Shown: in pieces, positions 4,412 through 58,857 of the stretch | How the letters are laid out: every line of letters begins with the position of its first letter | Numbering within the stretch: position 1 is the stretch's first letter | Source: Rhizobium sp. 007 | GTDB taxonomy: Bacteria; Pseudomonadota; Alphaproteobacteria; Rhizobiales; Rhizobiaceae | Length of the DNA stretch: 64,000 nt | Direction: 5' to 3' | Assembly: GCF_015353075.1 (NCBI RefSeq) | Contig: NZ_CP064188.1 | Coordinates: 1,054,001-1,118,000, forward strand | Program-made: the position numbers and the translations under genes | Notes under the pieces: model-generated | The model's database searches: none | What the model saw: the letters and a program-made list of their open reading frames with translations, nothing else | What the model was told of the DNA's origin: nothing

Positions 4412-4461
4412 CGAGAACGCTCCGCATCTGTCGTTGAGGTTGGCCGGGAAGCTGCCACCGC

Positions 4462-4482: not shown

Positions 4483-4486
4483 AGGA

Positions 4487-38151: not shown

Positions 38152-38940
38152 TCACCCCGGTGTCGGGTCCCAGAGCTTCCATGGCGCATTGCCGCTCTCC
38201 CAGGCCTTTTCGAGCACCATCTTGTCTCGCAGCGAATCCATGCTTTGCCAGAAGCCCTGGTGCCAATGCGAGCCAACCTTGCCCATGTGAAGCGCTCTTT
38301 CCATCGGCCCCTCTTCCCAGACGGTGTCATCACCTTCGATGAGGTCGAAGACTTCAGGCTCGCAGACAAAGAAGCCACCGTTGATCAGACCGCCATCGCC
38401 AATGCGTTTTTCGCGGAAGGCATGGACACGAGTTCCGTCGTCAGACAGGCCAAGCGCGCCATAGCGGCCCGGCTGGCTGACGGCGGTCAGCGTGATCCAG
38501 TTTCCGTCCCTCTCATGAAGCTCAATGGTCGCGGCGATATCGGTATCGGAGACACCGTCGCCATAGGTCAGAAGGAACCGCCTATCGCCAATGACGTCGC
38601 GGGCGCGCCTCAATCGTCCGCCAGTCATCGTGTTCAGTCCGGTATCGAGCACGGTGATCTTCCACGGCTCCAACGCGCGGCGGAGCCACTTGAACTCGCC
38701 TGTCGCTAGGTCGACTGTGAAGTCGCTGTTTATCATCGCATAGTTGATGAAGTAGTCCTTGATGTAATCCGCTTTATAACCGGCAAGCACAACGAAGTCG
38801 TTGAAGCCGTAGTGCGAATAGATCTTCATAATATGCCAGATGATCGGTCGCCCGCCGATCTCGACCATAGGCTTTGGCCGAAGTGTAGTCTCCTCCGAAA
38901 GACGGCTCCCGTAGCCTCCTGCAAAAATGACAACTTTCAT
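38152..38940 (-). CDS. rfbF: Glucose-1-phosphate cytidylyltransferase
   Basis: A 262-residue nucleotidyltransferase that makes CDP-glucose from CTP and glucose-1-phosphate. Features are the start FAGGYGSRLSEETTLRPKPM (nucleotide loop with Arg and Lys), GRPIIWHIMK, TYGDGVSD (metal-binding Asp) and NGGFFVCEPEVFD. It is the entry step to CDP-linked 3,6-dideoxy or branched sugars. Notably no CDP-glucose 4,6-dehydratase gene of the usual type is next to it. A sugar epimerase/dehydratase gene lies 70 bases upstream in the same direction, so the two are probably co-transcribed. Confidence 0.95.
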   Translation of the reverse strand: MKVVIFAGGYGSRLSEETTLRPKPMVEIGGRPIIWHIMKIYSHYGFNDFVVLAGYKADYIKDYFINYAMINSDFTVDLATGEFKWLRRALEPWKITVLDTGLNTMTGGRLRRARDVIGDRRFLLTYGDGVSDTDIAATIELHERDGNWITLTAVSQPGRYGALGLSDDGTRVHAFREKRIGDGGLINGGFFVCEPEVFDLIEGDDTVWEEGPMERALHMGKVGSHWHQGFWQSMDSLRDKMVLEKAWESGNAPWKLWDPTPG

Positions 38941-39010
38941 TGCGTCCTCTCGTCATTTGAAGCGTTACCCGCCGTACGCGGCTTTAAGTCACTGTGTCAC
39001 ATGATCCGGT

Positions 39011-40123
39011 TCAGCCAGGCATGGCTTCGCGCGTCCGATGAGCGGGGTCCTTGAAACCAGGAATGAAACTACGGTCGGACGGATTGGCCGTGTAGCGCAG
39101 ATCAGTGCCAAGGCTGCCGCCGTCGATCGCCTGTGTGAGCACGTTCAACCGCACGAGTTGCGCTGAGCGGTAATCGGGATCCTTCAAACCCGCCGCATCA
39201 AGGCCGGTTTTCAGATCGGCAATAGCGCCTGCAAGCGTTACTTCTGGCTGATGGGCCGGTGCCAGGCTCCGGTAGAGATCGAAATTAACCCGATAAGAAC
39301 GCCGGTCCGGTGGCGCGTCCTTGTTGATTTCGACCACCGTCCCCGGAACCGAGGCGGCGACGGCCTCCGCGAGCTCGCGGACCTGATAATTCCAGTCTTC
39401 GGAACCGACGTTGACGGCCAGAAAGTTTCCGCCATCCTGCCTGAGCAGCGCCCATTCGATTGCCCTTGCCATGTCGTTGACATGAATGAGCGGCCGCCAG
39501 GGCGTGCCATCAGAGAGGACCGAAACCCGTCCGGTCCTCAGCGCCGAGGCCACAAAATCGTTAAGGACGAGATCGAGCCGCGTGCGCCCTGAAAAGCCGC
39601 AGGCAGTCGCGAAGCGCAGCGCGCTGACCCTCATTTGGCTGTTGCGGGCGATCTCGCCAAGCCCGGTCTCGGCCGCAACCTTCGAACGCGAATAGGCGGT
39701 CAGAGGATTAAGCTCATCTGCTTCGGTGCGCGCGCCGCCCTCAGCAAATCCGTACATGGAGCAGCTGGAGGCGAAAACAAAGCTTCTTACGCCCATCGTG
39801 GCGGCGAGTTCGGCTGTTCTCAGTGTAGCACGGTGGTTAATCTCGTCGGTCACCGCCTCAAAGCGGCCGCCCATCGGGTCGTTGGAAACGGCTGCCAGAT
39901 GCACGACCGCATCGACGCCCTCGAATAGCTCGGCGGGCAGGTCGCGGACATCGGCAAAGACCTGACTATTAAGCAAACGCTCGGGCAGGTTTGCTTGGGT
40001 GAGGCAATGCGCGAAAAGGCCAGTATCGACGCCAACAAGCAAGCAGTCAGGCATCTCACGGCGCAGGTGAGAGACGACAGCAGGCCCGACATAGCCCATA
40101 TTTCCTGTGATTAAGATCTTCAT
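39011..40123 (-). CDS. NAD-dependent sugar epimerase/dehydratase
   Basis: A 370-residue extended short-chain dehydrogenase that acts on nucleotide sugars. KILITGNMGYVGPAVVSHL is the NAD-binding fold, SSCSMYG carries the catalytic Ser/Thr region and AYSRSKVAAE the Tyr-x3-Lys pair. The region RRSYRVNFDLYRS is typical of a subgroup often found with cytidylyltransferase and sugar methyltransferase genes. The start at 40123 follows GGAG. It is likely the partner of the CDP-glucose synthase downstream, either as a 4,6-dehydratase or a reductase/epimerase. Lack of the usual Asp-Glu before SMYG-type tyrosine motifs makes a pure dehydratase role uncertain. Confidence 0.85.
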   Translation of the reverse strand: MKILITGNMGYVGPAVVSHLRREMPDCLLVGVDTGLFAHCLTQANLPERLLNSQVFADVRDLPAELFEGVDAVVHLAAVSNDPMGGRFEAVTDEINHRATLRTAELAATMGVRSFVFASSCSMYGFAEGGARTEADELNPLTAYSRSKVAAETGLGEIARNSQMRVSALRFATACGFSGRTRLDLVLNDFVASALRTGRVSVLSDGTPWRPLIHVNDMARAIEWALLRQDGGNFLAVNVGSEDWNYQVRELAEAVAASVPGTVVEINKDAPPDRRSYRVNFDLYRSLAPAHQPEVTLAGAIADLKTGLDAAGLKDPDYRSAQLVRLNVLTQAIDGGSLGTDLRYTANPSDRSFIPGFKDPAHRTREAMPG

Positions 40124-40229
40124 TTCAAACGCTCCGGAACTGGTGACTGTCATTAAGATGGGCATGGCGCAAACCAGGGGGTTGCTTCACACCAACGTTG
40201 CATCGGATCAGTGTTTCTTGCGCGTCTCG

Positions 40230-42626
40230 TTAGAGCTCCTTCGATAGGTGCACGCGCGCCTTTCGCCGTCTGCGGCCTCGCGCCTTCATGATCGGCTCGC
40301 CATGCTCGAGGTAGTAGCTCGCATACCGGGAATAGAGCTTTTCGGAACTGCCAAGCCCACCATAGGTAGAAAGTTTCTCCTGATCGGCCTTGTTGAGCAC
40401 AACGCCCAGCAATTTTGCTGCGATCGCCGGTTCTTGTTCAAGCGTTGACTTCAAAAGGGCCCGCGGTGTGGCTCCCCATTCCGACACGAGCAGGAAACCA
40501 TCGGCCAACGGCTCAAAGGCTTTGGCATCAAAGACCGGCCCGATTGGTGGAAGATCGACGATTATATAGTCGAACATGGAGCGGGCCTCTTCTAACAGAG
40601 TTGCCATGGAAGGACCTGAGATCAGCTCGCTCGTGTTGAAGACCTTCACTTGGCGCGGCGTCGCGAGAAGGCTCGCACCCGTCTGTGGATCGACAACCAG
40701 AGTGTCTTGCCATTTCGTTGTTCCAGCCAGCGCCTCTGTCCAGCCGGTTTCAAAGCGGATGCCAAGACCCTGCGTTAGTGATCCGCGTCTAAGATCAGCA
40801 TCGATCATCAGCACCTTGGCTGGGCTGGATGCCACGAGCGTCGCGAAATTTGCCGCGATCGTCGTCTTGCCTTCGCCTGGCAATACTGAGACGACGCCGA
40901 TGACCTTGCAGTTCTGGCTGCCAAGCATCGTGTCGGTCACGATCTTTGCATGCCGTAAGGTCTCGGTAAATTTGGTGCCGCCCGACTTGACCGCAAACCG
41001 CATGGTTTCGACATCGGGATTGGCGATCAGCTTCCTTTCGTCATCGGGGGAGGGACGCGTGGCCCCAGGGATCGGCGGCAGGTAACCCAAGAACTTCAGG
41101 CCGAACGGCGTAAATTCCTCACCAAGGCGGAACGTGCCTTCCCTAATCTCGCGCCACAGGCCAAGTCCGATACCGAAGATCGCGCCGAGCATCAGCGAGC
41201 CACCAAGCGTCAAGGTGCGTTTGGGGCTGGATGCCTCGGTCGGCGGCGAGGCAGGCGAGATGACGCGCGCTTCTGATATCGGGAACGACTGGTTCTGGGC
41301 CGTTTCCTGATATTTCGTCAGATAGGTCTTGTAGAGGTCGCTAATGGCTTCGGCGTTGCGTTCCAAGTCCTTCAATTGCACGAGCGATTCATTCGCCGCC
41401 GAGGTTTGTCCGGTGATCCTCGACAGTCCCTCCTTCAGCGATGCCTCGCGCGAGACCGCAACCTCATACTGATTGCGGTAGCTTTCGGTCATCTGCTTGA
41501 GTTCTAGAAATATCTGCCGTCCAATGTCGTCCTGCTCCCTGCGCAGCGTGATTGCCTGCGGATGTTCGGGACCGAAACGGCCTTCGATCTCCTGGGCCCG
41601 TTTGGTGACCGCCAGATAGCGGGCTCTGAGCGTGGCAATGACCGTCGAGCCTTGCTGCTCGGAGACGGTTGCGGCATTGTCGACCGCAGTTTGCTGGCCG
41701 GCGGCGACGATCGCTTTGTACTGGTTGTAAAGCGCAAGCGCCTTGGCGCTGTCCGCCTGGGCCAAAATGTACTGGCCACTGATGTCGGAGAGCTGTTCTT
41801 CCGACAAGAGGGCACCTTTTGCTGAGGTGAGGCCGTTTTCGGTGCGGTAGCGTTCGACCTTCAGGGCCGCTTCCTGCGACTGGTCCTTCAGATCGGTCAG
41901 CCGAGCGCGCAACCAGACCGTCGCCCTTTGCGACGCGTCGAAATTGGCATCGAGCTTGTCTGACAGGTAGGCCTCGGCATAGGCGTTAGCGATCTGCGCC
42001 GACAAGGTGGGGTCTGTCGACGTGTAGTAGAGATCGATCACGAAGCTCTGCGGTTGCTGCTCGACCCTCAGATTTTCCATGAGAACTGCCACGGCAGCGC
42101 CCTTGCGCGCGTCGAGGCTATCGGCATCTGCCATCTCCGTGCCTTTGCCGGCAAACACGTCCATCGCCATCTTGGCAAGGCCCTTGATCTGCTGGGTGAC
42201 CGAGAGTGGAGGGTTGACGAATTCGTGCTTTTCGTAAAGCTGCTGCCTATCCACCACCTTTGCTGCAAGCGAGCTCGACCTCAAGATCGCCACCTGGCTC
42301 ATGATCTTCTTGTCAGATTCCATGTTTGCAGGCGCCGGTGAAACGTCTCCAGCAAACCGGCTCAGATTGTCATCGATGAGGACGCTAGTGCCTGCCGTGT
42401 AATAATAGGTTGCAAACACCAGCCGGGTAACGCCGAGCAGCAGGCCAATGGCGGCAAAAAGGACCACGAGCTTTGCTTGACGCCTGGCGATCTGTATCAG
42501 GCGGTCGACGTCTATGAACCTTTCATCGCCGGCCTCAGGCTGCTTGGCCGTGCCCGGCTGACCGAGATAGGGGCGTATTGCTTCCTGCATCTTCTTTGCC
42601 TTGCCTATGCCTATGAACTCGTTCAT
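40230..42626 (-). CDS. exoP: ExoP-type chain-length regulator with tyrosine autokinase
   Basis: A 798-residue inner-membrane co-polymerase fused to a bacterial tyrosine kinase. The Wzz domain occupies the N-terminal half with two membrane spans (about residues 53-72 and 480-500) around a long periplasmic coiled coil. A short proline-containing stretch (SPPTEASSPKRT) precedes the second span. The kinase has Walker A (LPGEGKTTIAAN), the Walker A' DADLR and Walker B IIVDLPP, and a C-terminal tyrosine cluster YSRYASYYLEHGE. It controls polymer length and export with ExoF. Its ATG overlaps the stop of the exoM stump (ATGA). Confidence 0.93.
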   Translation of the reverse strand: MNEFIGIGKAKKMQEAIRPYLGQPGTAKQPEAGDERFIDVDRLIQIARRQAKLVVLFAAIGLLLGVTRLVFATYYYTAGTSVLIDDNLSRFAGDVSPAPANMESDKKIMSQVAILRSSSLAAKVVDRQQLYEKHEFVNPPLSVTQQIKGLAKMAMDVFAGKGTEMADADSLDARKGAAVAVLMENLRVEQQPQSFVIDLYYTSTDPTLSAQIANAYAEAYLSDKLDANFDASQRATVWLRARLTDLKDQSQEAALKVERYRTENGLTSAKGALLSEEQLSDISGQYILAQADSAKALALYNQYKAIVAAGQQTAVDNAATVSEQQGSTVIATLRARYLAVTKRAQEIEGRFGPEHPQAITLRREQDDIGRQIFLELKQMTESYRNQYEVAVSREASLKEGLSRITGQTSAANESLVQLKDLERNAEAISDLYKTYLTKYQETAQNQSFPISEARVISPASPPTEASSPKRTLTLGGSLMLGAIFGIGLGLWREIREGTFRLGEEFTPFGLKFLGYLPPIPGATRPSPDDERKLIANPDVETMRFAVKSGGTKFTETLRHAKIVTDTMLGSQNCKVIGVVSVLPGEGKTTIAANFATLVASSPAKVLMIDADLRRGSLTQGLGIRFETGWTEALAGTTKWQDTLVVDPQTGASLLATPRQVKVFNTSELISGPSMATLLEEARSMFDYIIVDLPPIGPVFDAKAFEPLADGFLLVSEWGATPRALLKSTLEQEPAIAAKLLGVVLNKADQEKLSTYGGLGSSEKLYSRYASYYLEHGEPIMKARGRRRRKARVHLSKEL

Positions 42627-42745
42627 TGCGACACCCGCCTAACCTGCTCAGGTACCGCAACCGCCGCAATCGACGCCAGCGTGTCGCTGAGCGAGCTCCT
42701 CCGGTATGTGCAGACGGCAATTTCGATGAGAAGTGGCCGGCTCAT
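42623..42745 (-). pseudogene. exoM: Truncated exoM (40-codon N-terminal stump)
   Basis: A 40-residue frame starting MSRPLLIEIAVCTYRR that matches the N-terminus of ExoM-type GT2 transferases (I-x-I-x-VCTYRR...L..TL.S.AA..VPE). It then ends abruptly. An intact ExoM would continue for about 270 more residues. The stump has GGAG before its ATG, overlaps the exoA stop (ATGA) and its own stop overlaps the exoP start (ATGA). In Sinorhizobium meliloti the order is exoA-exoM-exoO-exoN-exoP, so a deletion removing most of exoM plus exoO and exoN would give exactly this. It may still act as a short coupling peptide. Confidence 0.75.
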
Positions 42746-43740: not shown

Positions 43741-43751
43741 CGCGTTCAATC

Positions 43752-45766: not shown

Positions 45767-45805
45767 AACTGAGCGGTCAGCATGTGAAGGTTGATCGAAA
45801 TTCAT

Positions 45806-46260: not shown

Positions 46261-46992
46261 CTAGTCGTTGAAGGTCGGCGGCGTCGGTCGTGCTGGACGC
46301 ATGAAAATCTCGGTGACTTCACAGGTGGACGGCATCGACAAGGCTGTGATTAGGTTCGCTGCCACCGATTCCGGCTGCAGTAACTCGTCTGCCTGATAGG
46401 AAAGCGCTCGCGAATCATGGATAGTTTCCTGCATCGGCGTTGCGGTCTTCCCGGGAAAGATGCTGAGGACACGCACGTCCTGATTGTTGATCTCGGCTCT
46501 CAGCACGTCGGCAAAGGCCTTCAAGGCATATTTACTCATCGTGTAACCCGCGAGCTCCATTCTCGGATTCAGCCACACGCTTGAGTTGATGAACGCGATA
46601 TAACCCTTCTGTCTGGCCAGTGCCGGGAGGAGGAGCTGTGTCAGAACATAGGGCGCGCGCAGATTGACGCGCCAAACGTTATCGAGTTCTTCCACCGGGC
46701 TTTGCGCAACCGGACCGGAACGAAAGACGCCAGCACTGTGCACAAGGTAGTCGATGCCGCGATCGGTCACCCGCAAACGGGCGACGAATTCGGCGATCGC
46801 CCGATCATCGGCAAGATCGACGTGATGCCAGCTGATCGATGCTCCGTTGCTAAGGGACGACGGCGGGACGCCGCCGCGGGTAAGAGCATGAACGGTCACG
46901 CCGGCTACACCTAAGGCTGATACGATCGCCTGACCGATACCGCCCGCTGCCCCGGTCACCACTGCCACCCGCCCCTTAAGAGATTTTTCCAT
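46261..46992 (-). CDS. Short-chain dehydrogenase/reductase in sugar module
   Basis: A 243-residue SDR. VAVVTGAAGGIGQAIVSAL is the cofactor-binding fold, HSAG corresponds to the NNAG motif, and the catalytic residues are Ser in FINSSVW with Tyr-x3-Lys in YTMSKYALK. It is the last gene of a four-gene operon (aminotransferase, methyltransferase, DUF4910 protein, SDR), five bases after its neighbour. By context it probably reduces or oxidises a keto group on a nucleotide sugar or its side chain. Fatty-acid-type reduction is possible, but the setting argues against it. Confidence 0.85.
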   Translation of the reverse strand: MEKSLKGRVAVVTGAAGGIGQAIVSALGVAGVTVHALTRGGVPPSSLSNGASISWHHVDLADDRAIAEFVARLRVTDRGIDYLVHSAGVFRSGPVAQSPVEELDNVWRVNLRAPYVLTQLLLPALARQKGYIAFINSSVWLNPRMELAGYTMSKYALKAFADVLRAEINNQDVRVLSIFPGKTATPMQETIHDSRALSYQADELLQPESVAANLITALSMPSTCEVTEIFMRPARPTPPTFND

Positions 46993-46997
46993 GATCC

Positions 46998-48308
46998 CTA
47001 GTCCCTCTGCGCCGGTGCAAGTAGATCATGGCCAAGCAGAAGATCGGCGGCATCGGCAATCAAATCAAATTCAAGACCCGATTTTACGGCGATATCGAGG
47101 AGATCATGTTTGCCGTCCGAGTAGTTTAGAACCCAGAGCAGGGCCAACTGACGCGTCTTCGTGTCGGATTTGCCGCCGACGGCATCGTAGAGCCCCCGTT
47201 TTCCAAGTTGCGGCTCGCACATCGGCGAAAGGTTCAGGAAAGCTCGATTGCGGTCCAGTGTGTCAAGCACGCAGGCGTAGGTTTTGAGCGAGTGGGCAAG
47301 CGCTTCCGGCTTCACGAAATCAAGGTTGTCGCCCGACGTATGGTACTCAGCAAACCGCCCGTAGGGTGTACGCGACAGACAGCCGAAGGGAAGGTTGATG
47401 CCAGGCGAGCTGAACTGCCTTTCGTCATAGCCATAGGGAGAAAACGCCATAATCGAATGGGCTTGCCCCGCTGCCTTCAGCACATGCTCCACCACCCGAT
47501 CGATCTCGGCCGTTTCGTGACGACTTTTCTTATAATGCAGCATGCCAGGGTCGCCCAGGTTGACGGCGACGAGACCATGTCTGATGCGCGACAGCCGCTC
47601 GCGGTTCATCGAAAGCCAGGCAATCGAACCGATGGTGCCCGGAATGAAGAGCATCCGCACGGAATAGCGCCGCTGTGCTGCCATCAAAAGCTTAGCAAGC
47701 TCGACACAGACGGCGATGCCGGACAGGTTGTCGTTGGCAAGTGACGGATGGCAGATATGCGTCGAGATAACGATCTCGTCGGTTGTGGTGCCGGGGATGA
47801 AACACTCGCCCCACAGGAGTTCGCCGTCTGAAAGTGTTGAGTCTATCAGGACCTCGTAGGATCCTTCGCTCATCGCCTCAAGGGCGTTCTGGGAGAGGCA
47901 GAAGCCCCAGTCCTCCTTGTAGTAGCTCGTCCGGTAGGGTATCCAAGCGGGATGGGCGGGGTCGGTGTGTAGATGGGTCCTCAGCGCCTTAAGCGGCAAT
48001 GTCGCGTGGATCGGTCGTGAATAGTTGACGACGTGCAGATTACTTGCCTTGAAGTCGATGACGCGATTGCCCTTATCGTCCTTCACATAGGCATCGCGGA
48101 TGCTCCATTCCTGCGGGACCGTCCAGTCGAAGATCTCTGTGCCGCTTGCTATGCGATGAATCTTAACCGGAATTTCCTGCCTGATAATCTCCAGTGTCTC
48201 CACGACGCCGGGACCGGTGATGCTGCGACAGATCGGATAAAGTCGTTCAATGAGGGCATACATCCGCGCGCCGGCAGGCTCCTTGTCTGGCGCACTGACG
48301 GCGCTCAA
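46998..48308 (-). CDS. DUF4910 aminopeptidase-like protein in sugar module
   Basis: A 436-residue protein with a zinc-peptidase-like (M28-related) fold of the DUF4910 type. Likely metal ligands are in STHICHPSLANDNLSG (His and Asp), GYDERQF (Glu-type) and AEYHTSGDN (His). The N-terminus YPICRSITGPGVVETL and the C-terminal winged-helix-like region (WVLNYSDGKHDLLDIA) are typical of the family. Such proteins occur in polysaccharide and sugar-modification clusters, where they might hydrolyse an amide on a sugar precursor. That role is a guess. It overlaps the methyltransferase gene by four bases. Confidence 0.85.
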   Translation of the reverse strand: MSAVSAPDKEPAGARMYALIERLYPICRSITGPGVVETLEIIRQEIPVKIHRIASGTEIFDWTVPQEWSIRDAYVKDDKGNRVIDFKASNLHVVNYSRPIHATLPLKALRTHLHTDPAHPAWIPYRTSYYKEDWGFCLSQNALEAMSEGSYEVLIDSTLSDGELLWGECFIPGTTTDEIVISTHICHPSLANDNLSGIAVCVELAKLLMAAQRRYSVRMLFIPGTIGSIAWLSMNRERLSRIRHGLVAVNLGDPGMLHYKKSRHETAEIDRVVEHVLKAAGQAHSIMAFSPYGYDERQFSSPGINLPFGCLSRTPYGRFAEYHTSGDNLDFVKPEALAHSLKTYACVLDTLDRNRAFLNLSPMCEPQLGKRGLYDAVGGKSDTKTRQLALLWVLNYSDGKHDLLDIAVKSGLEFDLIADAADLLLGHDLLAPAQRD

Positions 48309-49543
48309 GCAACGACCTCGACATTGGGAAGCGGAACCACAAACTGGCTGCCCAAGCCTTTGACCTCCGACATTTGGCTGATGATCTCATCCTTGATGTT
48401 CCAGGGAAGGATCAGGACGTAATCGGGCTTGGTCTCCGCAATCTTTTGCGGTGCGTGGATCGGGATGCGGGTCCCCGGAAGCAAGTGGTTCTGCTTATGA
48501 GGGCTGACATCGACAGTATATTCGATGAGATCCGTACCAACGCCGCAGAAATTCAAAAGCGTGTTGCCCTTTGCCGGAGCGCCATAGGCGACAACGGTCT
48601 TTTTGCTCTCTTTTGCATCGATCAGAAAGCGCAGCAGATCGCGCTTGGTGCGGTGAACCTGTTCAGAAAATTTGCTGTAGCGTTGAACAGAGTTGACGCC
48701 GCCTTCAATCTCGCGCGCGCGCAGTTCGCCGACACGCACCGAGACTGGCTGGCTTTGATCTTCGGCGTGGCGAGCATAAATGCGCAACGATCCTCCTTGT
48801 GGACGGATCTCATCGACATCGAAGATCGTCAAGCCGTGATGGGCAAAGATTTTCTCGACACTATAGAGCGACAGGTACGAATAGTGCTCATGATAGATCG
48901 TATCGTAGTAATTGAGCTCCAGCATCTTCATGAGATGCGGAAATTCGATCGTTACGATGCCGGTTGCCGACAACACGATTTTGATGCCGGCAACGAAATC
49001 GTTGATGTTGGGGACATGCGCCAGCACGTTATTGCCAATCAATAGGTCAGCTGTGAGGCCATCGCCAACCAACTGCCGTGCCGTCTCGACACCGAAAAAC
49101 TGCACCCTGCTCGGGATGCCGGCCTCTACCGCGACAGCCGCGACATTGGCACATGGCTCTATGCCGAGCACCGGAACGCCGCGTTCCTTGAAGTTCTTTA
49201 AAAGGTAGCCGTCGTTGCTGGCAATTTCGATCACCTGGTGGCCAGAGTCGAATTGAAACCGCTCGACCATATGGTCAACATATTCGCGGGCATGTTTCAG
49301 TACCGAGGCCGAATAGGAGGAGAAATAGGCATATTCGCTGTCGAAAATGTCTTCCCGCGGCGCCATGGGAGGGACCTGGACCAAGAAGCACTCGTCGCAA
49401 ACGAAAGCATGTAGTGAAAAGAACGGTTCGGCATCCTGGGTTTTGTCGATGGCGATGTAGGAGTTTGCAAGCGGTGACGCGCCAAGGTCGACGACCGTCT
49501 GAGTGAGTGTGGTATTGCAGAACCGGCAGTTGAATGAAGACAT
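48305..49543 (-). CDS. Sugar C-methyltransferase-like SAM-dependent protein
   Basis: A 412-residue methyltransferase of the type that adds a methyl to a carbon of a keto nucleotide sugar (TylCIII/NovU-like). An N-terminal zinc site is formed by CRFC and CDEC. The SAM fold follows (VIEIASNDGYLLKNFKERG, then GIEPCANVAAVA). HEHYSYLSLYSVEKIF carries the catalytic His/Tyr region. The C-terminal domain has VAYGAPAKGNTLLNFCG and ends LPNVEVV. It would make a branched-chain sugar. It lies second in the aminotransferase-led operon. The nearest alternatives are N-methyl or C-acyl transferases of the same family. Confidence 0.9.
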   Translation of the reverse strand: MSSFNCRFCNTTLTQTVVDLGASPLANSYIAIDKTQDAEPFFSLHAFVCDECFLVQVPPMAPREDIFDSEYAYFSSYSASVLKHAREYVDHMVERFQFDSGHQVIEIASNDGYLLKNFKERGVPVLGIEPCANVAAVAVEAGIPSRVQFFGVETARQLVGDGLTADLLIGNNVLAHVPNINDFVAGIKIVLSATGIVTIEFPHLMKMLELNYYDTIYHEHYSYLSLYSVEKIFAHHGLTIFDVDEIRPQGGSLRIYARHAEDQSQPVSVRVGELRAREIEGGVNSVQRYSKFSEQVHRTKRDLLRFLIDAKESKKTVVAYGAPAKGNTLLNFCGVGTDLIEYTVDVSPHKQNHLLPGTRIPIHAPQKIAETKPDYVLILPWNIKDEIISQMSEVKGLGSQFVVPLPNVEVVA

Positions 49544-49705: not shown

Positions 49706-51127
49706 CTATCGGCCGGCAGTGGCAAGGCTCGTCTCGCGCCGTTTGACGCGACGATTTAATTCAGGCACCAGAGCGGGCACAGCGTCAGGCTGGGTTGTCA
49801 TGCGGTTCGTGGCGCGGAACACCACGTCCGATGGTCGGCCGACCAGATAATTGGACACACCGTTTTCAAGGGCCTTGCGATAAACGCAAAGCGCACCGTC
49901 AACAGCATCGAGCGTCTTTGCAATCTCGGGGTCGCCGTGCGTGTAACTGACAACGAAGGAGGGAGCGAGAACGCCGCGCTTGATCAATTCCTGCAGGAAC
50001 AGCGTGCGGAACGCTTGGGAGGGACGGCCGTCCTCATCAATCGTTGCGTAAACGAGGTTACTTGCCAGCCCGAAGACGCTGAAATGATTGCTAATCCCGT
50101 GGCTAGCGGCGATCTGCGAAATACCTTTTCGAAGCGCCTCGCCTTTTTCAAAAAGATGCTGGATCACCGGCTCTTCACGATAAATCTTCATCGTTGCAAT
50201 TGCCGCCGCCATAGCGTGCGTTTCAGCGCCATGGGTGGTCGACAACAGGAAAACGCGTGGCTTCTCGCGCTGATCGATACCGCCAAGCTCCATGAATTGG
50301 CGTTTTCCCGCAAGCGCGGAGATGGCAAAGCCATTGCCCATCGCTTTGCCGAAACAGGATAGATCTGGCTGGATATCGTAAAGAGCCTGCGCTCCGTTCA
50401 GGTGCCACCGGAAACCGGTTATCATCTCGTCAAGGATGAAAAGTGCTCCATTGGCATGACAAAGATCACGAAGACGATGCAGGAAGTTATCCTTCGGTGC
50501 TTCGCCTTTCGATGGCTCAAGGATGACAGCCGCGATCTTACCGGGATGTTGCTCAAACAGTGCTTTGGCACTGTCAATCTCATTATAGCAAAACGATAGC
50601 GTCATATCCCGTACGGCTTTCGGGATGCCGGCATTCATGGGCGTTGTGCCGATGAACCAATCGTCGGTCGAAAAGAACGGGTGATCGGCGCATCGGGCAA
50701 CAAGGTCACGACCGGTGACGGCTCTTGCCAAACGGATGGCGCCAGAGGTTGCATGTGAGCCATCCTTGCAGAATTTGACCATTTCGGCGCCTTGGATCGT
50801 CTCAAGAAAGATCGATGCGCAATCTAACTCGATGACTGCCGGCCGGGTGAAGTTCGCACCATTTTTCAATTCACGCTCGACAGCGCGCAAGACCTTCGGA
50901 TAGGCATGGCCAAGGGAGACTGCACGGTTTCCCATGCCAAACTCGATATATTTGTTGCCGTCTACATCAAAGACATAGGCGCCGTGCCCCCGGGCGATGA
51001 AGCCCGGCGATAAGACCGGATACTGATCGTCGCCCTTTGCATAAGTATGCGCTCCTCCCGGAATCAACCTTCTGGCTCGCTGGCGCAACTCTTTCGAGTT
51101 CTCAAAGTTGCTAATGAGGCTGGTCAC
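49706..51127 (-). CDS. Class III aminotransferase, GSA-aminomutase-like
   Basis: A 473-residue PLP enzyme related to glutamate-1-semialdehyde aminomutase. Key features are GGAHTYAKGDDQYP near the N-terminus, FCKDGSHATSGAIRLARA, ILDEMITGFRW (PLP-contacting Asp) and the Schiff-base lysine in CFGKAMGNGFAISAL. The GTG start at 51127 follows GGAGGGGGAAA; a GTG eight codons earlier overlaps this site. A true GSA aminomutase is unlikely here: the sequence is longer and lies in a sugar operon. It probably transfers an amino group to or within a sugar precursor. It heads the methyltransferase-DUF4910-SDR operon with a 160-base gap. Confidence 0.85.
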   Translation of the reverse strand: MTSLISNFENSKELRQRARRLIPGGAHTYAKGDDQYPVLSPGFIARGHGAYVFDVDGNKYIEFGMGNRAVSLGHAYPKVLRAVERELKNGANFTRPAVIELDCASIFLETIQGAEMVKFCKDGSHATSGAIRLARAVTGRDLVARCADHPFFSTDDWFIGTTPMNAGIPKAVRDMTLSFCYNEIDSAKALFEQHPGKIAAVILEPSKGEAPKDNFLHRLRDLCHANGALFILDEMITGFRWHLNGAQALYDIQPDLSCFGKAMGNGFAISALAGKRQFMELGGIDQREKPRVFLLSTTHGAETHAMAAAIATMKIYREEPVIQHLFEKGEALRKGISQIAASHGISNHFSVFGLASNLVYATIDEDGRPSQAFRTLFLQELIKRGVLAPSFVVSYTHGDPEIAKTLDAVDGALCVYRKALENGVSNYLVGRPSDVVFRATNRMTTQPDAVPALVPELNRRVKRRETSLATAGR

Positions 51128-51151
51128 CGTTCTTTCCCCCTCCGAAAACAC

Positions 51152-52438: not shown

Positions 52439-52599
52439 CAGCCCGGCTCTTTGGGTGGCGCTGGCCGCCGCCCTGCCGTCCCGATTTGCGCAGCCGACGT
52501 TAGGGGAGGCGCCGTCGGCGCATTGCCGTCAAATTCAATGGCACAGCGCCGCCTTGATCAAGGCATGCAACACATTCCATCGTCTGCGGATCACGACGG

Positions 52600-52770: not shown

Positions 52771-52966
52771 CCGCTCCGGCTGGTGAAGTAAGCCATCGAT
52801 GTAAAACACGAACAGCTATCCAGGAAGCCGATGAACAAAAAAGAAACCATGTTACTCAAGACAGATGAGGAAGTTTCTCCGGTTTAACTGTTCTATTGAC
52901 TCCGGCTTCTAAGCTGATTACCCATGACTAACAAACCTGAAAATCCTTTCACAAACTAGGATCTTC

Positions 52967-54871: not shown

Positions 54872-54977
54872 AGCCTGCGCCGGTCGATTTGCGGTCGCGC
54901 CCCGCAAAGCCCTTGCCCGCTCCGCTTTTTCCAGATGCGCGGCCGCGGTCTTCTCGGCCAAGTCAGGAGCCTTTTCG

Positions 54978-56039
54978 TCAGGCGTTTGATGTCGCCAGGG
55001 GATCGCGACGTCTGGACTGAAATCGCCGATTGATCACCCTGCCCAACGGTTTTTCGACGTAAACATAGGCAATCAGCGACAGGCCGAGCGCAGCCGCGAC
55101 TTCGATCGGAGGGAAAGCCCAATGCGGGATCCCGCTTCGCAGAAGAAGCGCGACGATCGCCACGCCGAATAACACATGCCAAAGATAGATCGAGTACGAT
55201 GCGTTGCCAAGGAAGAGCAGCATGCTGGATGGCTGGACATTCCTTCGCCGCTCCCACATCACGGCGGCAAGGACGAGAAGCGCCGAGGGAACACCCCATC
55301 TTATGGCGCGCGGCAGGTCTGCATCAAAGGCCGTGGCCGCTGCCAAGCAGATCAGAGCGACGGCAGCAAGTCCTATACACAGCCAGGTCGGACAATCTGG
55401 TCCACGGACGAATGCACGGCCAATCAAGAGACCGGCGGCGAATTCCAAGATGACGGGGCTTGTCAAAGCCCGCAGGTAAGGCCAATCCAACAGGAGTGAC
55501 GAAAGGCACATGATGCAGAGCGAGCCGATTGCCAAGGTCAGTCTGGTAGTGTGTTCCCTGAAGAATAGCGTGAGGGAGAAGACGAGATAGAAGACCATTT
55601 CGTAGGTGAGTGTCCACCCTTGGACGACGACCGGATGAAGGCCGTCCTGCAGGTGTGGAAGAAAAAACAAGGAGCCAAGGAGGTTTTGCAACGATCCATC
55701 GTGATTGAAGAAAAAGGCCGGCTTGACGAGCAAGGCAGCAAATGTCGCAAACGTCACAACCCAGTAAAGTGGCACAACTCTTTTGACGCGTTTTTGAACA
55801 AAATGTCCCGGTGTCATGGCTGTTCCGTCAGTCGTGATCCACATGATGAAGCCGCTGATAACGAAGAACAGGTCGACGCCCGCCGCTCCGACTGAAAAGC
55901 CGAGATTATGTCGTTCGCTGACATGGAAAACGAGAACTGCGATTGCTGCGATCCCTCGCAGATATTGAACAGTATAGATCTGCTGCACGGTACGCCTCAC
56001 ATGTGCAAGAAAACGCAGAATGCAAACCAGAGTCTTCAT
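54978..56039 (-). CDS. exoZ: ExoZ-like polysaccharide O-acetyltransferase
   Basis: A 353-residue integral membrane acyltransferase-3 protein, with about ten spans and no SGNH domain. It opens YTVQYLRGIAAIAVLVFHVS, close to the ExoZ start, and has RVKRVVPLYWVVT and QGWTLTYEMVFYLVF. In rhizobia ExoZ acetylates a glucose in the exopolysaccharide repeat. Usually exoZ lies next to exoQ; here it is about 20 kb away, so the link is by sequence resemblance only. The first 15 residues are basic and the start is not well supported by a ribosome site. Confidence 0.78.
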   Translation of the reverse strand: MKTLVCILRFLAHVRRTVQQIYTVQYLRGIAAIAVLVFHVSERHNLGFSVGAAGVDLFFVISGFIMWITTDGTAMTPGHFVQKRVKRVVPLYWVVTFATFAALLVKPAFFFNHDGSLQNLLGSLFFLPHLQDGLHPVVVQGWTLTYEMVFYLVFSLTLFFREHTTRLTLAIGSLCIMCLSSLLLDWPYLRALTSPVILEFAAGLLIGRAFVRGPDCPTWLCIGLAAVALICLAAATAFDADLPRAIRWGVPSALLVLAAVMWERRRNVQPSSMLLFLGNASYSIYLWHVLFGVAIVALLLRSGIPHWAFPPIEVAAALGLSLIAYVYVEKPLGRVINRRFQSRRRDPLATSNA

Positions 56040-56069
56040 TGTAATGACGCCGGTTCAATGCAGTAAACA

Positions 56070-56486
56070 TCACGGGTAAATGCTATTCAGTCGTTGGGTT
56101 GCAGGATAAATATCGGTGTTTGACCACTTGAATGCCGCTAAGGCGAATAGTGTCTTTTGTCTTGATGGTGACTTTTTTGCAGCTCCGGTGATTGAATCCT
56201 GGCGCGGGTCACGATCCTTTCTTACTACCGCGCCAAGCGATAGGTCAGCGTCGATCGCTTCATGAGCGGCTTTGATGAATGCTGCGCGAACATCTTCGAG
56301 AGGCACGCGGTTATGCAAGCCCTCCAGGCACACCATGACTACCTCAGAAAAGTCCTCACCGTCATCGATCGACCATCGCTGTAGAAGCGTTTCGGCGGCG
56401 CGGCTGACAGAATTAACAACTCGGTACTCTGCGATGCAATGCATCGTCAGACCGATGGGCCGAACGGCCAAATTGTTTTGTTTCAT
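56070..56486 (-). CDS. DUF982 domain protein
   Basis: A 138-residue protein with a DUF982-type core, a family common in rhizobia with no known function. The pattern SVSRAAETLLQRW, DGEDFSEVVMVCLEGLHNRV, PLEDVRAAFIKAAHEA matches the family's helix layout. The C-terminal 40 residues (KSPSRQKTLFALAAFKW) are basic and not part of the domain. AAGGTG precedes the ATG. It lies near IS630 debris. A second DUF982 gene is at the right edge of the window. Confidence 0.75.
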   Translation of the reverse strand: MKQNNLAVRPIGLTMHCIAEYRVVNSVSRAAETLLQRWSIDDGEDFSEVVMVCLEGLHNRVPLEDVRAAFIKAAHEAIDADLSLGAVVRKDRDPRQDSITGAAKKSPSRQKTLFALAAFKWSNTDIYPATQRLNSIYP

Positions 56487-56639
56487 GGCACCTTGCTCAC
56501 TGTTTAGCCCCGGTAGCTATTGCCAATGCAAAATCCATGCCGAGCCGCTTAAGCAGCCGAAGAGAAAGGTTGTCTGCGGAAGTGGCGTCGAAAATTCCAT
56601 TCGCTGGCGTTTCGGCAGGTCTGATACGAACGAGCGGCG

Positions 56640-56760
56640 ATCGATGCGCCGATTGGCGGCTTCCGATGGACATGATCTTCCTCTTGGGCAGCCATGGGTG
56701 GCGATGTCGCCGCTATCCTTGACGATACGGTTGGAGAGCCAGTTGTCACCTAAGAACATT
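56640..56760 (-). pseudogene. IS630-family transposase remnant (minus strand)
   Basis: One frame reads GDNWLSNRIVKDSGDIATHG, which matches the IS630 C-terminal motif (RDNWLSNRIF..YDDI). After a deletion of about 12 codons and a frame change the next frame reads KIMSIGSRQ, the usual continuation. The rest of the transposase, including the catalytic Asp and Glu region, is missing. It is the mirror-direction partner of the remnant near 59.4 kb. Confidence 0.75.
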
Positions 56761-56994
56761 GACGCGTACTGTAACGCAATTTTCGCAACCTTCGGCTCCT
56801 CCTCTTGGCGTAAGGATCCGGCTTATTTGCAGCGAATGGGTAAGGCTGCAGCAGAGCTTTTAAAATGACGATTGAGAGGCTCTGGTGCGCCGATTGAATA
56901 CTGCATTTTCCGTAGATCTACCCGTCGGTGTCGATGTAAGATTATCAGCCACACAATTGATGCGAGGGTCCCCACCGAAGTTCCGTCTCCGTCA

Positions 56995-58278
56995 CTACGC
57001 AGCAAACATCGCCGTCTGTTCGCGGCGCAGCAGATCGATGGTGCGGCCTGCCGGCAGCACCACATCGGCATAGGTAAGGACTTGATCCTTCGCCACGGCC
57101 TGTTTCAAGACGCATCCCTCTGCAACCCCCATGGGCAGCAAATTCTGAGCGCCGGCGACATCGACGCGCTCGCATTGGCCATAGCTCATGTAGCCGCCCA
57201 AACCGTCGATTGTTTCGCCAGCATTAAGGTCGCGCTTTGCAGTCGCCACAACCTCGACCCTTGGGCCCTCCAGTGGTTGAAGCACGGGATCGCGTAAAAG
57301 TACAACCCTAGCCACTGAGAGGGGTACTTCGAAATGGCAAAGATGGTAAGGTGTGTAAAAGCTATAAAGCGGGCCGGTTCCGAGCTTGTAAAGGTTCAGG
57401 TAATGCTGCTGCTTCGGATCGTCGTGGTAGGCGAGAATAAAGACACCCGGACCTGGTGTTGCTCCCACAACATAGTCGACGGCTCCACCCACGGCTTTCA
57501 GCGCCTCAATGTCATACGCGTTGACGAGTTCATCGACATGGCCACGATGCTCGACACCTGTCATGCCGCGCTTCAAAATGGACATGCCAGTGCCGTTAGC
57601 GACAATAGCTTGCTCAAAGCTAATCTTCGTGCCATCAGCGAAGCTGGTGACCATATGCGGGTCCTGCCCCCATTTTGCCGCGAATTCGGCCTGCGTTGTC
57701 GGTGTTCGATAGGGATCCTGTAGGCCTTTGATATTGCCGCACACCAGCGGCGTAAGGCCGATGGATTTGACGAAGCGCCACAAGTTCATCTGTACTCCGG
57801 GCTGGTCTCCATCGCAGGCCGTGAAGATAACCCCTGCCGCATCGGCTTTTTTCTTGAGAAGCGGACCAACCGTACCGTCCAGTTCGGCATTCATGGTCAC
57901 CATGTCGCGACCGTGCGCGATTGCCCCTAAGGTGATGTTGGCGCCATATTCGATCGCACCCGTCGCATCAATCAAGCAATCCAGATCACCCGACTCATAC
58001 AGCAATGCTGGATTGTCAGTGACAGCCGGCGTGCCTTCGGCAATCAAGTCGGAGAGCTTGCTGCTGTCGCAGGCGTAGGATGCCTCAAGGCCAGCAGCGC
58101 GGTAGGCTAACATAGCCTTCTCCACGTTTCGGTTGCAGATCACGCAAAGGATCATTCCCGGCACGGAGTTGGCGATCTGGTTGACGATGCCCTTCGCCAT
58201 AAAGCCCGCGCCATACATCCCGACCCTAATGGGACGGCCATCCTGTTCCCGTTTCTTCAGGAGCGTGTCAATCACCAT
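56995..58278 (-). CDS. NAD(P)-binding SAF-domain oxidoreductase in sugar module
   Basis: A 427-residue protein with an N-terminal dinucleotide fold (RVGMYGAGFMAKGIVNQIA), a homoserine-dehydrogenase-like middle (TMNAELDGTVGPLLKKKADA) and a C-terminal SAF-like domain (AKRDLNAGETIDGLGGYMSYG). Such proteins recur in polysaccharide loci beside RmlC-like and methyltransferase genes, with no defined reaction known to me. The start follows AGGAGG six bases before the ATG. It lies 15 bases after the epimerase gene, so the pair is an operon. It probably makes or modifies the acid or side chain of an unusual sugar. Confidence 0.78.
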   Translation of the reverse strand: MVIDTLLKKREQDGRPIRVGMYGAGFMAKGIVNQIANSVPGMILCVICNRNVEKAMLAYRAAGLEASYACDSSKLSDLIAEGTPAVTDNPALLYESGDLDCLIDATGAIEYGANITLGAIAHGRDMVTMNAELDGTVGPLLKKKADAAGVIFTACDGDQPGVQMNLWRFVKSIGLTPLVCGNIKGLQDPYRTPTTQAEFAAKWGQDPHMVTSFADGTKISFEQAIVANGTGMSILKRGMTGVEHRGHVDELVNAYDIEALKAVGGAVDYVVGATPGPGVFILAYHDDPKQQHYLNLYKLGTGPLYSFYTPYHLCHFEVPLSVARVVLLRDPVLQPLEGPRVEVVATAKRDLNAGETIDGLGGYMSYGQCERVDVAGAQNLLPMGVAEGCVLKQAVAKDQVLTYADVVLPAGRTIDLLRREQTAMFAA

Positions 58279-58293
58279 CAGAACCTCCTGCTC

Positions 58294-58857
58294 CTAGATG
58301 CCGCGTAGGCTTTCCACGCCATGAAAATCCTCATCGAAGTCTGGCCATTTCGCGTCTTTCTCCGAAATTACGACCCCTTCAACCGGCCAGGCGATGCCGA
58401 ACTTCGGATCATTCCAACGCACACCGCGCTCCGACTTTGGATCATAGAACTCGCTGGCAAGATACAATGTCTCGGTGTTGGGCCTTAGTGTCACAAACCC
58501 GTGGGCAAAGCCGCGGGGCACATAAAATGCCAGCCGGTTCTCACCCGTTAACTCAACCGCGTGCCAACCGAGGTACGTCGCGGAATCGGGCCGCAGATCG
58601 ACGATACAGTCCCACAGTGCTCCGGAGAGGCACCGGACGATCTTAACTTCTGGCGACGGCGGGAGTTGATAGTGCAGCCCACGCAGGGTGCCCGCTTCGG
58701 CATTGAACGAGTTATTGACTTGTACGAAGCGGCCTTCCACTCCGGCGTCGGCCATTTCTCGCTCGCAGAAGACGCGCTGAAACCATCCTCGTTCGTCCCC
58801 GCGCGGTTCCGGCTCGATAACGTATGCACCATCCAAAGGCGTTCCGTGAAACTTCAT
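58294..58857 (-). CDS. rfbC: RmlC-like dTDP-4-dehydrorhamnose 3,5-epimerase family protein
   Basis: A 187-residue cupin epimerase. Typical features are EPRGDERGWFQRVFCERE, LRGLHYQLPP (catalytic His), KIVRCLSGALWDCIVDLR and FYVPRGFAHGFVTL. It usually converts a 4-keto-6-deoxy nucleotide sugar at C3/C5. Here the companion genes point to a CDP-sugar rather than dTDP-rhamnose, because rmlA, rmlB and rmlD are absent. It is the first gene of a two-gene operon with the SAF oxidoreductase. Confidence 0.9.
   Translation of the reverse strand: MKFHGTPLDGAYVIEPEPRGDERGWFQRVFCEREMADAGVEGRFVQVNNSFNAEAGTLRGLHYQLPPSPEVKIVRCLSGALWDCIVDLRPDSATYLGWHAVELTGENRLAFYVPRGFAHGFVTLRPNTETLYLASEFYDPKSERGVRWNDPKFGIAWPVEGVVISEKDAKWPDFDEDFHGVESLRGI

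What the first reader, a model, noticed from the sequence alone, without database searches (positions are those of the whole stretch)
38152..58857. Candidate undescribed CDP-sugar pathway interleaved with exo genes
Eight genes form a recurring-looking set: cytidylyltransferase (38152), epimerase/dehydratase (39011), SDR (46261), DUF4910 peptidase-like (46998), sugar C-methyltransferase-like (48305), GSA-aminomutase-like aminotransferase (49706), SAF oxidoreductase (56995) and RmlC-like epimerase (58294). rmlA, rmlB, rmlD and a standard CDP-glucose 4,6-dehydratase are not seen. Inference: they build a methyl-branched sugar that carries an amino or amide side chain. A peptidase-like and an aminomutase-like enzyme in the same operon as a sugar methyltransferase is hard to explain with known pathways.
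Basis: partly seen in the sequence, partly recalled or inferred. Interest (0 to 1): 0.72.

Follow-up and report, generated by a model that had tools for sequence, protein, structure and literature searches.

The report
Conserved pathway to an unusual L-sugar
Four of the eight genes belong to a sugar-building set found in very different bacteria, some of them carrying streptomycin-type antibiotic clusters, and they probably make a rare ring-contracted sugar; the other four look like a second, branching module.

Summary
All eight genes are real, but they form two modules. Module A is RfbF (38152), an extended SDR (39011), RmlC (58294) and a DXR-II-like oxidoreductase of the DLO1 clade (56995). 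All four lie on one strand in 65 of 80 named DLO1 loci, from several phyla. In actinomycetes RmlC adjoins 9 of 9 fetched DLO1 genes and 0 of 11 distant homologues. The SDR lacks the dehydratase motif and is kin to PDB 6vo6 (Cj1427 by recall), a C4 dehydrogenase. In one genus DLO1 occurs in 5 of 392 genomes, always in streptomycin-type clusters: three with StrE/StrL; two with RfbF+SDR+RmlC instead, one of these keeping only StrE/StrL fragments. Best reading: CDP-glucose, C4 oxidation without dehydration, 3,5-epimerisation, then DLO1 ring contraction to a hydroxystreptose-type sugar. A plain CDP-L-hexose is the main rival. Module B (SDR, DUF4910, C-methyltransferase, aminotransferase) probably branches from the same trunk; DUF4910's link to sugar genes was published in 2014. 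No product has been shown.

The parts
38152..38940 (-). Module A: RfbF, CTP:glucose-1-phosphate cytidylyltransferase (StrQ-like)
   Evidence: TIGR02623 363.8 bits, cut-off 300.25; homologue in 65 of 80 named DLO loci
39011..40165 (-). Module A: extended SDR ('EPI'), proposed NDP-glucose C4-dehydrogenase (net 4-oxidation, no 4,6-dehydration); homology starts at about residue 15
   Evidence: SSCS-x-YG plus YxxxK in 76 of 76 core homologues, in place of the dehydratase TDE (one actinomycete homologue outside these has STCS); PDB 6vo6 72.7 bits, top hit of a cyanobacterial homologue at 96.6 bits
58294..58857 (-). Module A: RmlC-family 3,5-epimerase
   Evidence: TIGR01221 171.1 bits, cut-off 155.75; catalytic His in 86 of 87 and Tyr in 86 of 87 core homologues
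56995..58278 (-). Module A: DLO1-clade DXR-II-like NAD(P) oxidoreductase, proposed ring-contracting reductoisomerase (dihydrohydroxystreptose-synthase type)
   Evidence: PF21135 179 bits plus SAF; PDB 3upl 226 bits; clade apart from seven distant DRL-family rows, support 100/100
26580..27725 (-). Probable module A helper: LhgO-like FAD oxidoreductase, proposed to re-oxidise L-2-hydroxyglutarate
   Evidence: NF008726 174 bits, below its cut-off of 299; 49-53% identical genes near the core in Xanthomonas, Sphingobium and Gemmobacter loci
48305..49543 (-). Module B: sugar 3-C-methyltransferase (TylC3/MtmC type)
   Evidence: PF08421, PF13489, PF08484; PDB 4rv9 D-mycarose 3-C-methyltransferase 270.5 bits
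46998..48308 (-). Module B: DUF4910/DUF2172/HTH_47 peptidase-like protein, methyltransferase-linked subfamily
   Evidence: PF16254 352.3 bits; PDB 3k9t 506 bits; D193, N194 and no Glu at 224 in 8 of 8 methyltransferase-linked homologues
46261..46992 (-). Module B: classical SDR, possible 4-ketoreductase (inference)
   Evidence: PF00106 117.7 bits; none of the 25 NCBIfam models shown (of 206 matching) reaches its cut-off
49706..51151 (-). Module B: class-III aminotransferase of the PRK06209 family (named GSA aminomutase)
   Evidence: NF004856 764.8 bits, cut-off 486; homologues 57% and 67% near DUF4910 in L135 and L138

Best explanation
Module A (RfbF, EPI, RmlC, DLO1, helped by an LhgO-type oxidase) makes a CDP-linked L-sugar that keeps its 6-hydroxyl. 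RfbF makes CDP-glucose. EPI oxidises C4 with tightly bound NAD that is renewed by 2-oxoglutarate, giving L-2-hydroxyglutarate, which the LhgO-type oxidase recycles; no water is lost from C5/C6. RmlC epimerises C3 and C5 of the 4-keto sugar. DLO1 then carries out the DXR-type reaction on it (alpha-ketol shift plus reduction by NAD(P)H), contracting the ring to CDP-3-C-(hydroxymethyl)-L-lyxose (dihydrohydroxystreptose) or a close isomer for the exopolysaccharide. Module B (C-methyltransferase, DUF4910, SDR, aminotransferase) probably uses the same 4-keto trunk for a second, C-methyl-branched and perhaps amino sugar. Shown: gene families, conserved linkage, motif conservation, presence of RfbF+EPI+RmlC where StrE/StrL are lost or broken in streptomycin-type clusters. 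Inferred: every reaction, the nucleotide used by EPI/RmlC/DLO1, the ring contraction, and all of module B.
For: (1) All four genes on one strand in 65 of 80 named loci, 71 of 89 core loci, 26 of 35 clusters at 85% identity. (2) Actinomycetes: RmlC beside 9 of 9 DLO1 genes, EPI 6 of 9, RfbF 5 of 9; none of the three in 11 stretches around distant homologues (Fisher p 6e-6, 0.002, 0.008). (3) EPI has SSCS-x-YG and YxxxK in 76 of 76; its kin 6vo6 is Cj1427 by recall, and Cj1427 reduces 2-oxoglutarate to L-2-hydroxyglutarate (passages). (4) LhgO or a relative in 54 of 89 core loci (12 of 35 clusters) against 0 of 27 comparison loci, seven of them shorter than 19 kb (p 0.0006); three of four tested loci genes pass the LhgO cut-off. 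(5) Persicobacter has rfbG where others have EPI. (6) Five streptomycin-type clusters hold DLO1: three with full-length StrE, StrL and StrM and no EPI in the genome at E 1e-30, two with EPI+RfbF+RmlC; of these G777 has no StrE/L/M in 75 kb and G1116 only StrE/StrL fragments, without Ns. (7) G777's StrR-like protein is identical to one named from Streptomyces subrutilus, a hydroxystreptomycin source by recall; the StrE-type G826 and G1126 have contigs as long as those of S. mashuensis and S. bluensis. (8) DLO1 is homologous to DXR-II. (9) Coxiella, whose O-antigen has dihydrohydroxystreptose, has a DLO1; its C4 oxidase and synthase are unidentified.
Against: No product was measured for any locus here; papers seen call dihydrohydroxystreptose unique to Coxiella. 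DLO1 also occurs in the three clusters that keep StrL, the assumed ring-contracting enzyme, so its job there is unclear. RmlA (dTDP route) is kept in both EPI-type clusters. StrP/Q/X are counted among essential streptomycin genes in a 2025 paper (passage) and by recall belong to N-methyl-L-glucosamine. Two of the three fosmidomycin-anchoring residues of DXR-II are changed in DLO1. The RmlC position that is Met in CBU1838 is Phe in the window and Phe or Tyr elsewhere. That the Coxiella DLO1 gene lies in cbu1831-1838 is my inference from accession numbers, and one paper assigns dihydrohydroxystreptose to another region. 15 of 80 loci lack the full set on one strand, six of them with no contig end, split cluster or visible damage to explain it (L017, L028, L031-L034). 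The Persicobacter row sits on a long branch.
Confidence: 0.53

Rival explanations
1. Same trunk, but DLO1 is a plain C4 ketoreductase, so module A makes CDP-L-mannose or an isomer (an unbranched L-hexose with 6-OH). In streptomycin-type clusters this would feed N-methyl-L-glucosamine.
For: StrP, StrQ and StrX are called essential streptomycin genes in a 2025 paper (passage), by recall for N-methyl-L-glucosamine; Campylobacter makes an L-heptose by C4 dehydrogenase, C3/C5 epimerase and C4 reductase (passages); DLO1 occurs in all five streptomycin-type clusters, which should all need that aminosugar.
Against: EPI has no match at E 1e-30 in three whole genomes with such clusters that should make the same aminosugar; RfbF+EPI+RmlC appear exactly in the two clusters where the streptose genes StrE/StrL are lost or broken; the C4 reductases I know of in such routes are SDRs, not DXR-like (recall).
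Confidence: 0.27
2. All eight genes make one sugar: a methyl-branched CDP-sugar with an amino or amide group.
For: Module B homologues do recur with RfbF-like, SSCS-type EPI and RmlC genes in L136-L138, so the trunk can feed the methyltransferase; the region is conserved over at least 80% of its length in six Rhizobium plasmids.
Against: DLO1 was not found in the 23 DUF4910 loci compared, and DUF4910 is within 10 kb of DLO1 only in Rhizobium, 3 of 89 core loci.
Confidence: 0.11
3. EPI is an ordinary C4 epimerase and DLO1 performs the oxidation at C4, EPI the final reduction.
For: EPI scores best with GalE in NCBIfam, below every cut-off.
Against: Persicobacter has rfbG, a 4-keto maker, in place of EPI and keeps DLO1; L-2-hydroxyglutarate oxidase genes fit a 2-oxoglutarate-dependent dehydrogenase.
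Confidence: 0.09

Closest known systems
Streptose route StrD-StrE-StrM-StrL of streptomycin clusters
   Same: Nucleotidyltransferase, 4-keto maker, 3,5-epimerase, terminal reducing and rearranging enzyme; DLO1 itself lies in five such clusters
   Different: Here CDP synthase, a C4 dehydrogenase without dehydration, and a DXR-like terminal enzyme instead of an RmlD-like one
Campylobacter Cj1427 / Cj1430 / C4-reductase heptose route (PMC10680097, passages)
   Same: C4 dehydrogenase using 2-oxoglutarate, then a C3/C5 epimerase
   Different: GDP-heptose substrate; a C4 reductase at the end; whether an L-2-HG oxidase gene is linked there was not looked at
DXR-II (DRL) of Brucella and others (PMC3847144)
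   Same: Same family, 226 bits to 3upl, Lys191 equivalent invariant in 89 of 89 core loci
   Different: DLO1 is another clade; Lys193 and Thr229 are Leu and Ile; linked to sugar-nucleotide genes
DUF4910 carbohydrate neighbourhoods (PMC4000134, 2014)
   Same: DUF4910 with epimerase, nucleotidyltransferase and sugar methylase genes
   Different: Here in a methyltransferase-linked subfamily with its own residue signature
Dihydrohydroxystreptose synthesis in Coxiella (PMC9095892)
   Same: RmlC (CBU1838) and a proposed C4 oxidase plus DHHS synthase; genome encodes a DLO1
   Different: dTDP route proposed there; the locus was not examined here

Membership tests
Glucose-1-phosphate cytidylyltransferase (RfbF) | TIGR02623 over curated cut-off | tested here: met
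   363.8 against 300.25 bits
CDP-glucose 4,6-dehydratase | TIGR02622 cut-off anywhere in the genome | tested here: not met
   best 100.7 against 278.45 in the whole genome
NDP-sugar 4,6-dehydratases (for 39011) | Thr-Asp-Glu motif before YG (motif recalled) | tested here: not met
   SSCSMYG in the window; SSCS in 76 of 76 core homologues
Cj1427-type C4 dehydrogenase | Sequence kinship to PDB 6vo6 | tested here: inconclusive
   72.7 bits, tied with MoeE5 72.9; clear top hit only for a cyanobacterial homologue. That 6vo6 is Cj1427 is recalled
Cj1427-type C4 dehydrogenase | 2-oxoglutarate-dependent C4 oxidation | not testable with these tools
   needs purified enzyme
RmlC | TIGR01221 cut-off and catalytic His/Tyr | tested here: met
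   171.1 against 155.75 bits; His and Tyr kept
DXR-II | Fosmidomycin/substrate-anchoring Lys191, Lys193, Thr229 | tested here: not met
   Lys kept, Lys193 is Leu and Thr229 is Ile, 89 of 89 core loci
DLO1 | Clade with published DLO1 members | tested here: met
   79% to a Pseudoxanthomonas spadix gene (L012), a species listed under DLO1 (another strain); clade 100/100 apart from seven distant rows. The published accessions themselves were not in the tree
L-2-hydroxyglutarate oxidase (for 26580) | NF008726 cut-off 299 | tested here: not met
   174 bits; of four locus genes tested, L037, L082 and L059 pass (554-622 bits) and L085 does not (187.7)
TylC3-type sugar C-methyltransferase | PF08421+PF13489+PF08484 | tested here: met
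   PDB 4rv9 270.5 bits
HemL glutamate-1-semialdehyde aminomutase | TIGR00713 cut-off 527.3 | tested here: not met
   228.7 bits; PRK06209 met at 764.8
Streptomycin-type cluster (for G777) | StrB1-type inosamine-phosphate amidinotransferase and StrR-type regulator | tested here: met
   PDB 1bwd 707.4 bits; homologues of the regulator named streptomycin biosynthesis operon regulator
Dihydrohydroxystreptose pathway | Ring-contracted product | not testable with these tools
   no polymer or enzyme data

The most novel reading that the evidence does not exclude
Bacteria of several phyla share an unrecognised route to CDP- (or dTDP-) dihydrohydroxystreptose in which a DXR-II-like enzyme, not an RmlD-like one, is the ring-contracting synthase, and a 2-oxoglutarate-dependent C4 dehydrogenase with its own L-2-hydroxyglutarate recycling replaces the 4,6-dehydratase. 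The same module serves exopolysaccharides, hydroxystreptomycin-type antibiotic clusters and the Coxiella O-antigen, so a sugar called unique to one pathogen would be widespread.
Probability: 0.44. Interest if true: 0.86.

Novelty: new variant of a known kind. Interest (0 to 1): 0.69.

Why it matters
If true, it names candidates for two enzymes that a 2022 paper says are still to be found for dihydrohydroxystreptose, gives a function to the DLO1 family (called uncharacterised in 2013), extends DXR-type rearrangement from isoprenoid precursors to nucleotide sugars, and predicts a rare furanose in many surface polymers. The steps can be tested with soluble enzymes from harmless bacteria.

Tried and rejected
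Rejected: one eight-gene pathway as the recurring unit. Rejected: 39011 as an unusual 4,6-dehydratase (motif). Rejected: 56995 as an isoprenoid DXR-II (residues, clade). Weakened: N-methyl-L-glucosamine as the product of the whole module. A simple rule '6-deoxy substrate goes with Phe186 in DLO1' fails: the three StrE-type clusters have Phe but the rfbG-linked Persicobacter gene has Leu. The RmlC Met123 idea from PMC9095892 gave no support. Literature: DUF4910 gave 2 papers; any three of glucose-1-phosphate cytidylyltransferase, C-methyltransferase, aminopeptidase and SAF domain gave none; searches for S. griseus and Coxiella locus numbers gave nothing that places their DLO1 genes; a search for the sugar's names gave 28 papers (listing), none of whose titles names another polymer with it. 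DLO1 was too rare in the 398-genome Pseudomonadota sample (2 of 398 at E 1e-80) to count co-occurrence there. No structure was predicted. Of 23 matches listed I fetched new stretches for 9 DLO1 and 11 distant ones; L040 had been fetched before, and the last two distant ones listed were left out because a call takes 20 stretches. Of 30 DUF4910 places outside the window's genome I fetched and compared 23.
Full report
What is there. The window matches a large replicon of Rhizobium gallicum-type strains: 20.9 kb aligns at 99.2% to NZ_CP092346.1 and NZ_CP017105.1, and six Rhizobium plasmid records hold at least 80% of it in one place. All eight ORFs of the finding exist, all on the minus strand, with the families given. 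The genome has no CDP-glucose 4,6-dehydratase over the cut-off. It does have an rml group on another contig, so 'rmlABD not seen' holds for the window only.

Two modules. I took 80 named loci around relatives of the 56995 protein, up to 10 kb on each side (the tool kept the best 80 of 566 confirmed stretches), and mapped all eight genes. At the thresholds, RmlC was found in 78 of 80, EPI in 68, RfbF in 65, and all four on one strand in 65. The methyltransferase was found in 10 (three Rhizobium, seven cyanobacteria), DUF4910 and the aminotransferase in 3 (all Rhizobium), the SDR in 1 (Rhizobium; two other Rhizobium loci end inside or before it). The 15 loci without the full set are: three Rhizobium loci where the cluster is split as in the window; L013 (core damaged); L015, L042 and L064 (contig too short); L071 and L081 (RfbF cut by the locus end); and L017, L028, L031-L034, where RfbF and EPI are not within 10 kb. 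With nine further loci (seven on plasmids, two from one genome) the figure is 71 of 89, or 26 of 35 clusters at 85% identity. Hosts include Xanthomonas and Pseudoxanthomonas, Sphingobium, Roseomonas-type bacteria, Beijerinckia, Bradyrhizobium, many cyanobacteria, Kineosporia, a Phycisphaerales MAG, Deinococcus, Gemmobacter and Paracoccus.

Controls. Distant homologues of 56995 (about 35% identity) in Sinorhizobium, Agrobacterium and Priestia lie among sugar-uptake, kinase and 2-oxoacid-dehydrogenase genes; four such loci, including NGR234, have none of the core partners. In actinomycetes 22 of 394 genomes match at E 1e-60. Of the 20 stretches fetched, 9 hold a relative of at least 59% identity: RmlC lies beside 9 of 9, EPI 6 of 9, RfbF 5 of 9. 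The other 11, at 35-40%, have none of them (Fisher p 6e-6, 0.002 and 0.008). The three DLO1 loci without EPI have an EPI homologue elsewhere in the genome, 47-74% identical.

What 56995 is. It belongs to the DRL/DXR-II superfamily (PF21135; PDB 3upl, 226 bits). A 2013 study (PMC3847144; passages, part of section 5 and section 6 read) divided this family into DXR-II, DLO1 and DLO2, the last two uncharacterised; four tested DLO members failed to complement a DXR mutant. Ours is 79% identical to a gene of Pseudoxanthomonas spadix, a species listed as DLO1 (another strain). In my tree the DLO1 rows form one clade (100/100) apart from seven distant rows (the tool flags long branches, Persicobacter above all). 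Of the fosmidomycin anchors Lys191, Lys193 and Thr229, only the first is kept: Lys, Leu and Ile in 89 of 89 core loci. In the 13 further actinomycete DLO1 genes checked, Lys is kept, the second is Leu or Phe and the third Ile, Val or Met; in the 15 distant homologues checked, Lys193 is kept in 13 and Thr229 in 12. So it is not an isoprenoid enzyme but keeps part of the site. On paper the DXR substrate and an NDP-4-keto-hexose line up well: ketone, two hydroxyl carbons, then a carbon bearing phosphate. This mapping is my inference.

What 39011 is. It carries SSCS-x-YG and YxxxK, both invariant in 76 of 76 core homologues, in place of the dehydratase Thr-Asp-Glu (the dehydratase motif is recalled); the G1116 homologue has STCS. 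A cyanobacterial homologue's best PDB hit is 6vo6 (96.6 bits, next 73.0); for the window protein 6vo6 (72.7) ties with MoeE5 (72.9). 6vo6 is, by recall, Cj1427. PMC10680097 (passages) says that Cj1427 oxidises C4 of GDP-heptose, that its bound NADH is oxidised by 2-oxoglutarate, which becomes L-2-hydroxyglutarate, and that a C3/C5 epimerase acts next.

A missed helper gene. Between RfbF and EPI, cyanobacterial and Deinococcus loci have a gene of the L-2-hydroxyglutarate oxidase type. Four such locus genes were tested: L037, L082 and L059 pass the cut-off (554-622 bits against 299), Gemmobacter L085 does not (187.7). The window has a related FAD oxidoreductase at 26580-27725 (174 bits), whose 49-53% homologues lie near the core in Xanthomonas, Sphingobium and Gemmobacter loci. 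One or other is present in 54 of 89 core loci (12 of 35 clusters) and in 0 of 27 comparison loci (p 0.0006); seven of the 27 are shorter than 19 kb, which favours absence there. Such an oxidase is what a 2-oxoglutarate-dependent dehydrogenase would call for.

Streptomycin-type clusters. One actinomycete DLO1 (G777) lies in a cluster with an amidinotransferase matching PDB 1bwd, inosamine-phosphate amidinotransferase (707 bits), a regulator whose homologues are named streptomycin biosynthesis operon regulator, an RmlA (447 bits) and an APH(6)-family kinase; StrF, StrG and StrH are named from memory (Pfam finds nothing for the last two). RfbF and EPI are side by side in it; RmlC and DLO1 are 21 kb away. 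In 392 genomes of the same genus DLO1 occurs in five at E 1e-100, always in such a cluster. Three (G826, G1028, G1126) have full-length StrE, StrL and StrM (G826's StrM matches the epimerase 7pwh at 298 bits) and no EPI match at E 1e-30 in the whole genome. Two (G777, G1116) have EPI, RfbF and RmlC: G777 lacks StrE, StrL and StrM over 75 kb (an RmlB exists elsewhere), and G1116 keeps StrM but only 63 residues of StrE and two short pieces of StrL, with no Ns in the stretch (a mis-assembly is not excluded). The simplest reading is that RfbF+EPI+RmlC took over the streptose-type branch, making the version that keeps the 6-hydroxyl, with DLO1 as the only remaining candidate in the cluster for ring contraction. 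The five DLO1s form one clade (100/99), so both cluster types share it by descent. DLO1's presence beside StrL in the other three is not explained.

Which strains. The G777 regulator is identical over 96% of its length to a protein named from Streptomyces subrutilus, and contig lengths listed equal those of G826 (S. mashuensis), G1126 (S. bluensis) and G1116 (no name). By recall S. subrutilus is a hydroxystreptomycin source, S. bluensis makes bluensomycin, and StrQ was shown to be a CDP-glucose synthase in another 5'-hydroxystreptomycin producer; no call confirms these three points. They fit the reading: EPI-type for the 6-hydroxy sugar, StrE-type for the 6-deoxy one.

Coxiella. Its O-antigen contains dihydrohydroxystreptose; PMC9095892 (abstract, passages and discussion) characterised its RmlC (CBU1838), proposed a C4 oxidase plus a streptose-synthase-like enzyme, and said that both remain to be identified. 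The 2013 table lists Coxiella DLO1 proteins. That the gene lies within cbu1831-1838 is inferred from accession numbers only. Another paper assigns dihydrohydroxystreptose to cbu0825-0856 and cbu1831-1838 to other O-antigen sugars (passages), which counts against this link.

Module B. DUF4910 was found in 29 of 398 Pseudomonadota genomes, the window's own included. Of 30 places in other genomes I compared 23. The five closest (48-53%) all have the C-methyltransferase nearby; three of them also have RmlC, an RfbF-like gene (31-39%) and an SSCS-type EPI; two have the aminotransferase. The 18 more distant loci have none of these at the thresholds; six of the 18 are under 17 kb long. Methyltransferase-linked DUF4910s share a signature (D193, N194, Gly or Ala at 224) in 8 of 8 loci, three of them Rhizobium; the other 17 checked have Glu at 224. 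So module B also recurs and seems to use the same kind of trunk. The 2014 study PMC4000134 already linked DUF4910 to such genes and argued that it is not a peptidase.

Verdict. I put the oxidation-without-dehydration trunk at about 0.8 and ring contraction by DLO1 at about 0.65 given the trunk; both are slightly higher than.

Noticed in passing
window 26580-27725 (-): LhgO-like FAD oxidoreductase in the same exo region, homologues near the core in Xanthomonas, Sphingobium and Gemmobacter loci
   Followed up: yes
L234 (G1116 C89:45000-64990), about 3970-4640: Short remnants of StrE and StrL in a streptomycin-type cluster that has RfbF, EPI and RmlC; StrM full-length
   Followed up: partly
L135-L139 and L002-L004 against L140-L159: DUF4910 splits into a methyltransferase-linked subfamily (D193, N194, no Glu224) and the rest (Glu224)
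   Followed up: partly
L161, L162 (and L163 in part): Distant DRL homologues sit among sugar ABC transporter, kinase and 2-oxoacid dehydrogenase genes, suggesting catabolism of an unknown sugar
   Followed up: no
L017, L031-L034, L202, L203: RmlC-DLO pairs standing apart from RfbF and EPI; in the L202 and L203 genomes EPI is on another contig
   Followed up: partly
L013: Xanthomonas arboricola pv. juglandis locus with the core damaged: RfbF and EPI mostly missing, RmlC partial
   Followed up: no
L058, L060, L061, L065, L071, L077, L081: Cyanobacterial loci with a 56-58% C-methyltransferase between EPI and RmlC of the core, so both branches may share one operon there
   Followed up: partly
L136, L137, L138: PIG-L-type deacetylase beside the DUF4910/methyltransferase/RfbF-like genes (family tested for L138 only, below cut-off; the others read by eye)
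   Followed up: no
L139: A methyltransferase-linked DUF4910 locus with RfbF (54%) and a partial CDP-glucose 4,6-dehydratase match (46%), so a 6-deoxy trunk may feed module B there
   Followed up: no
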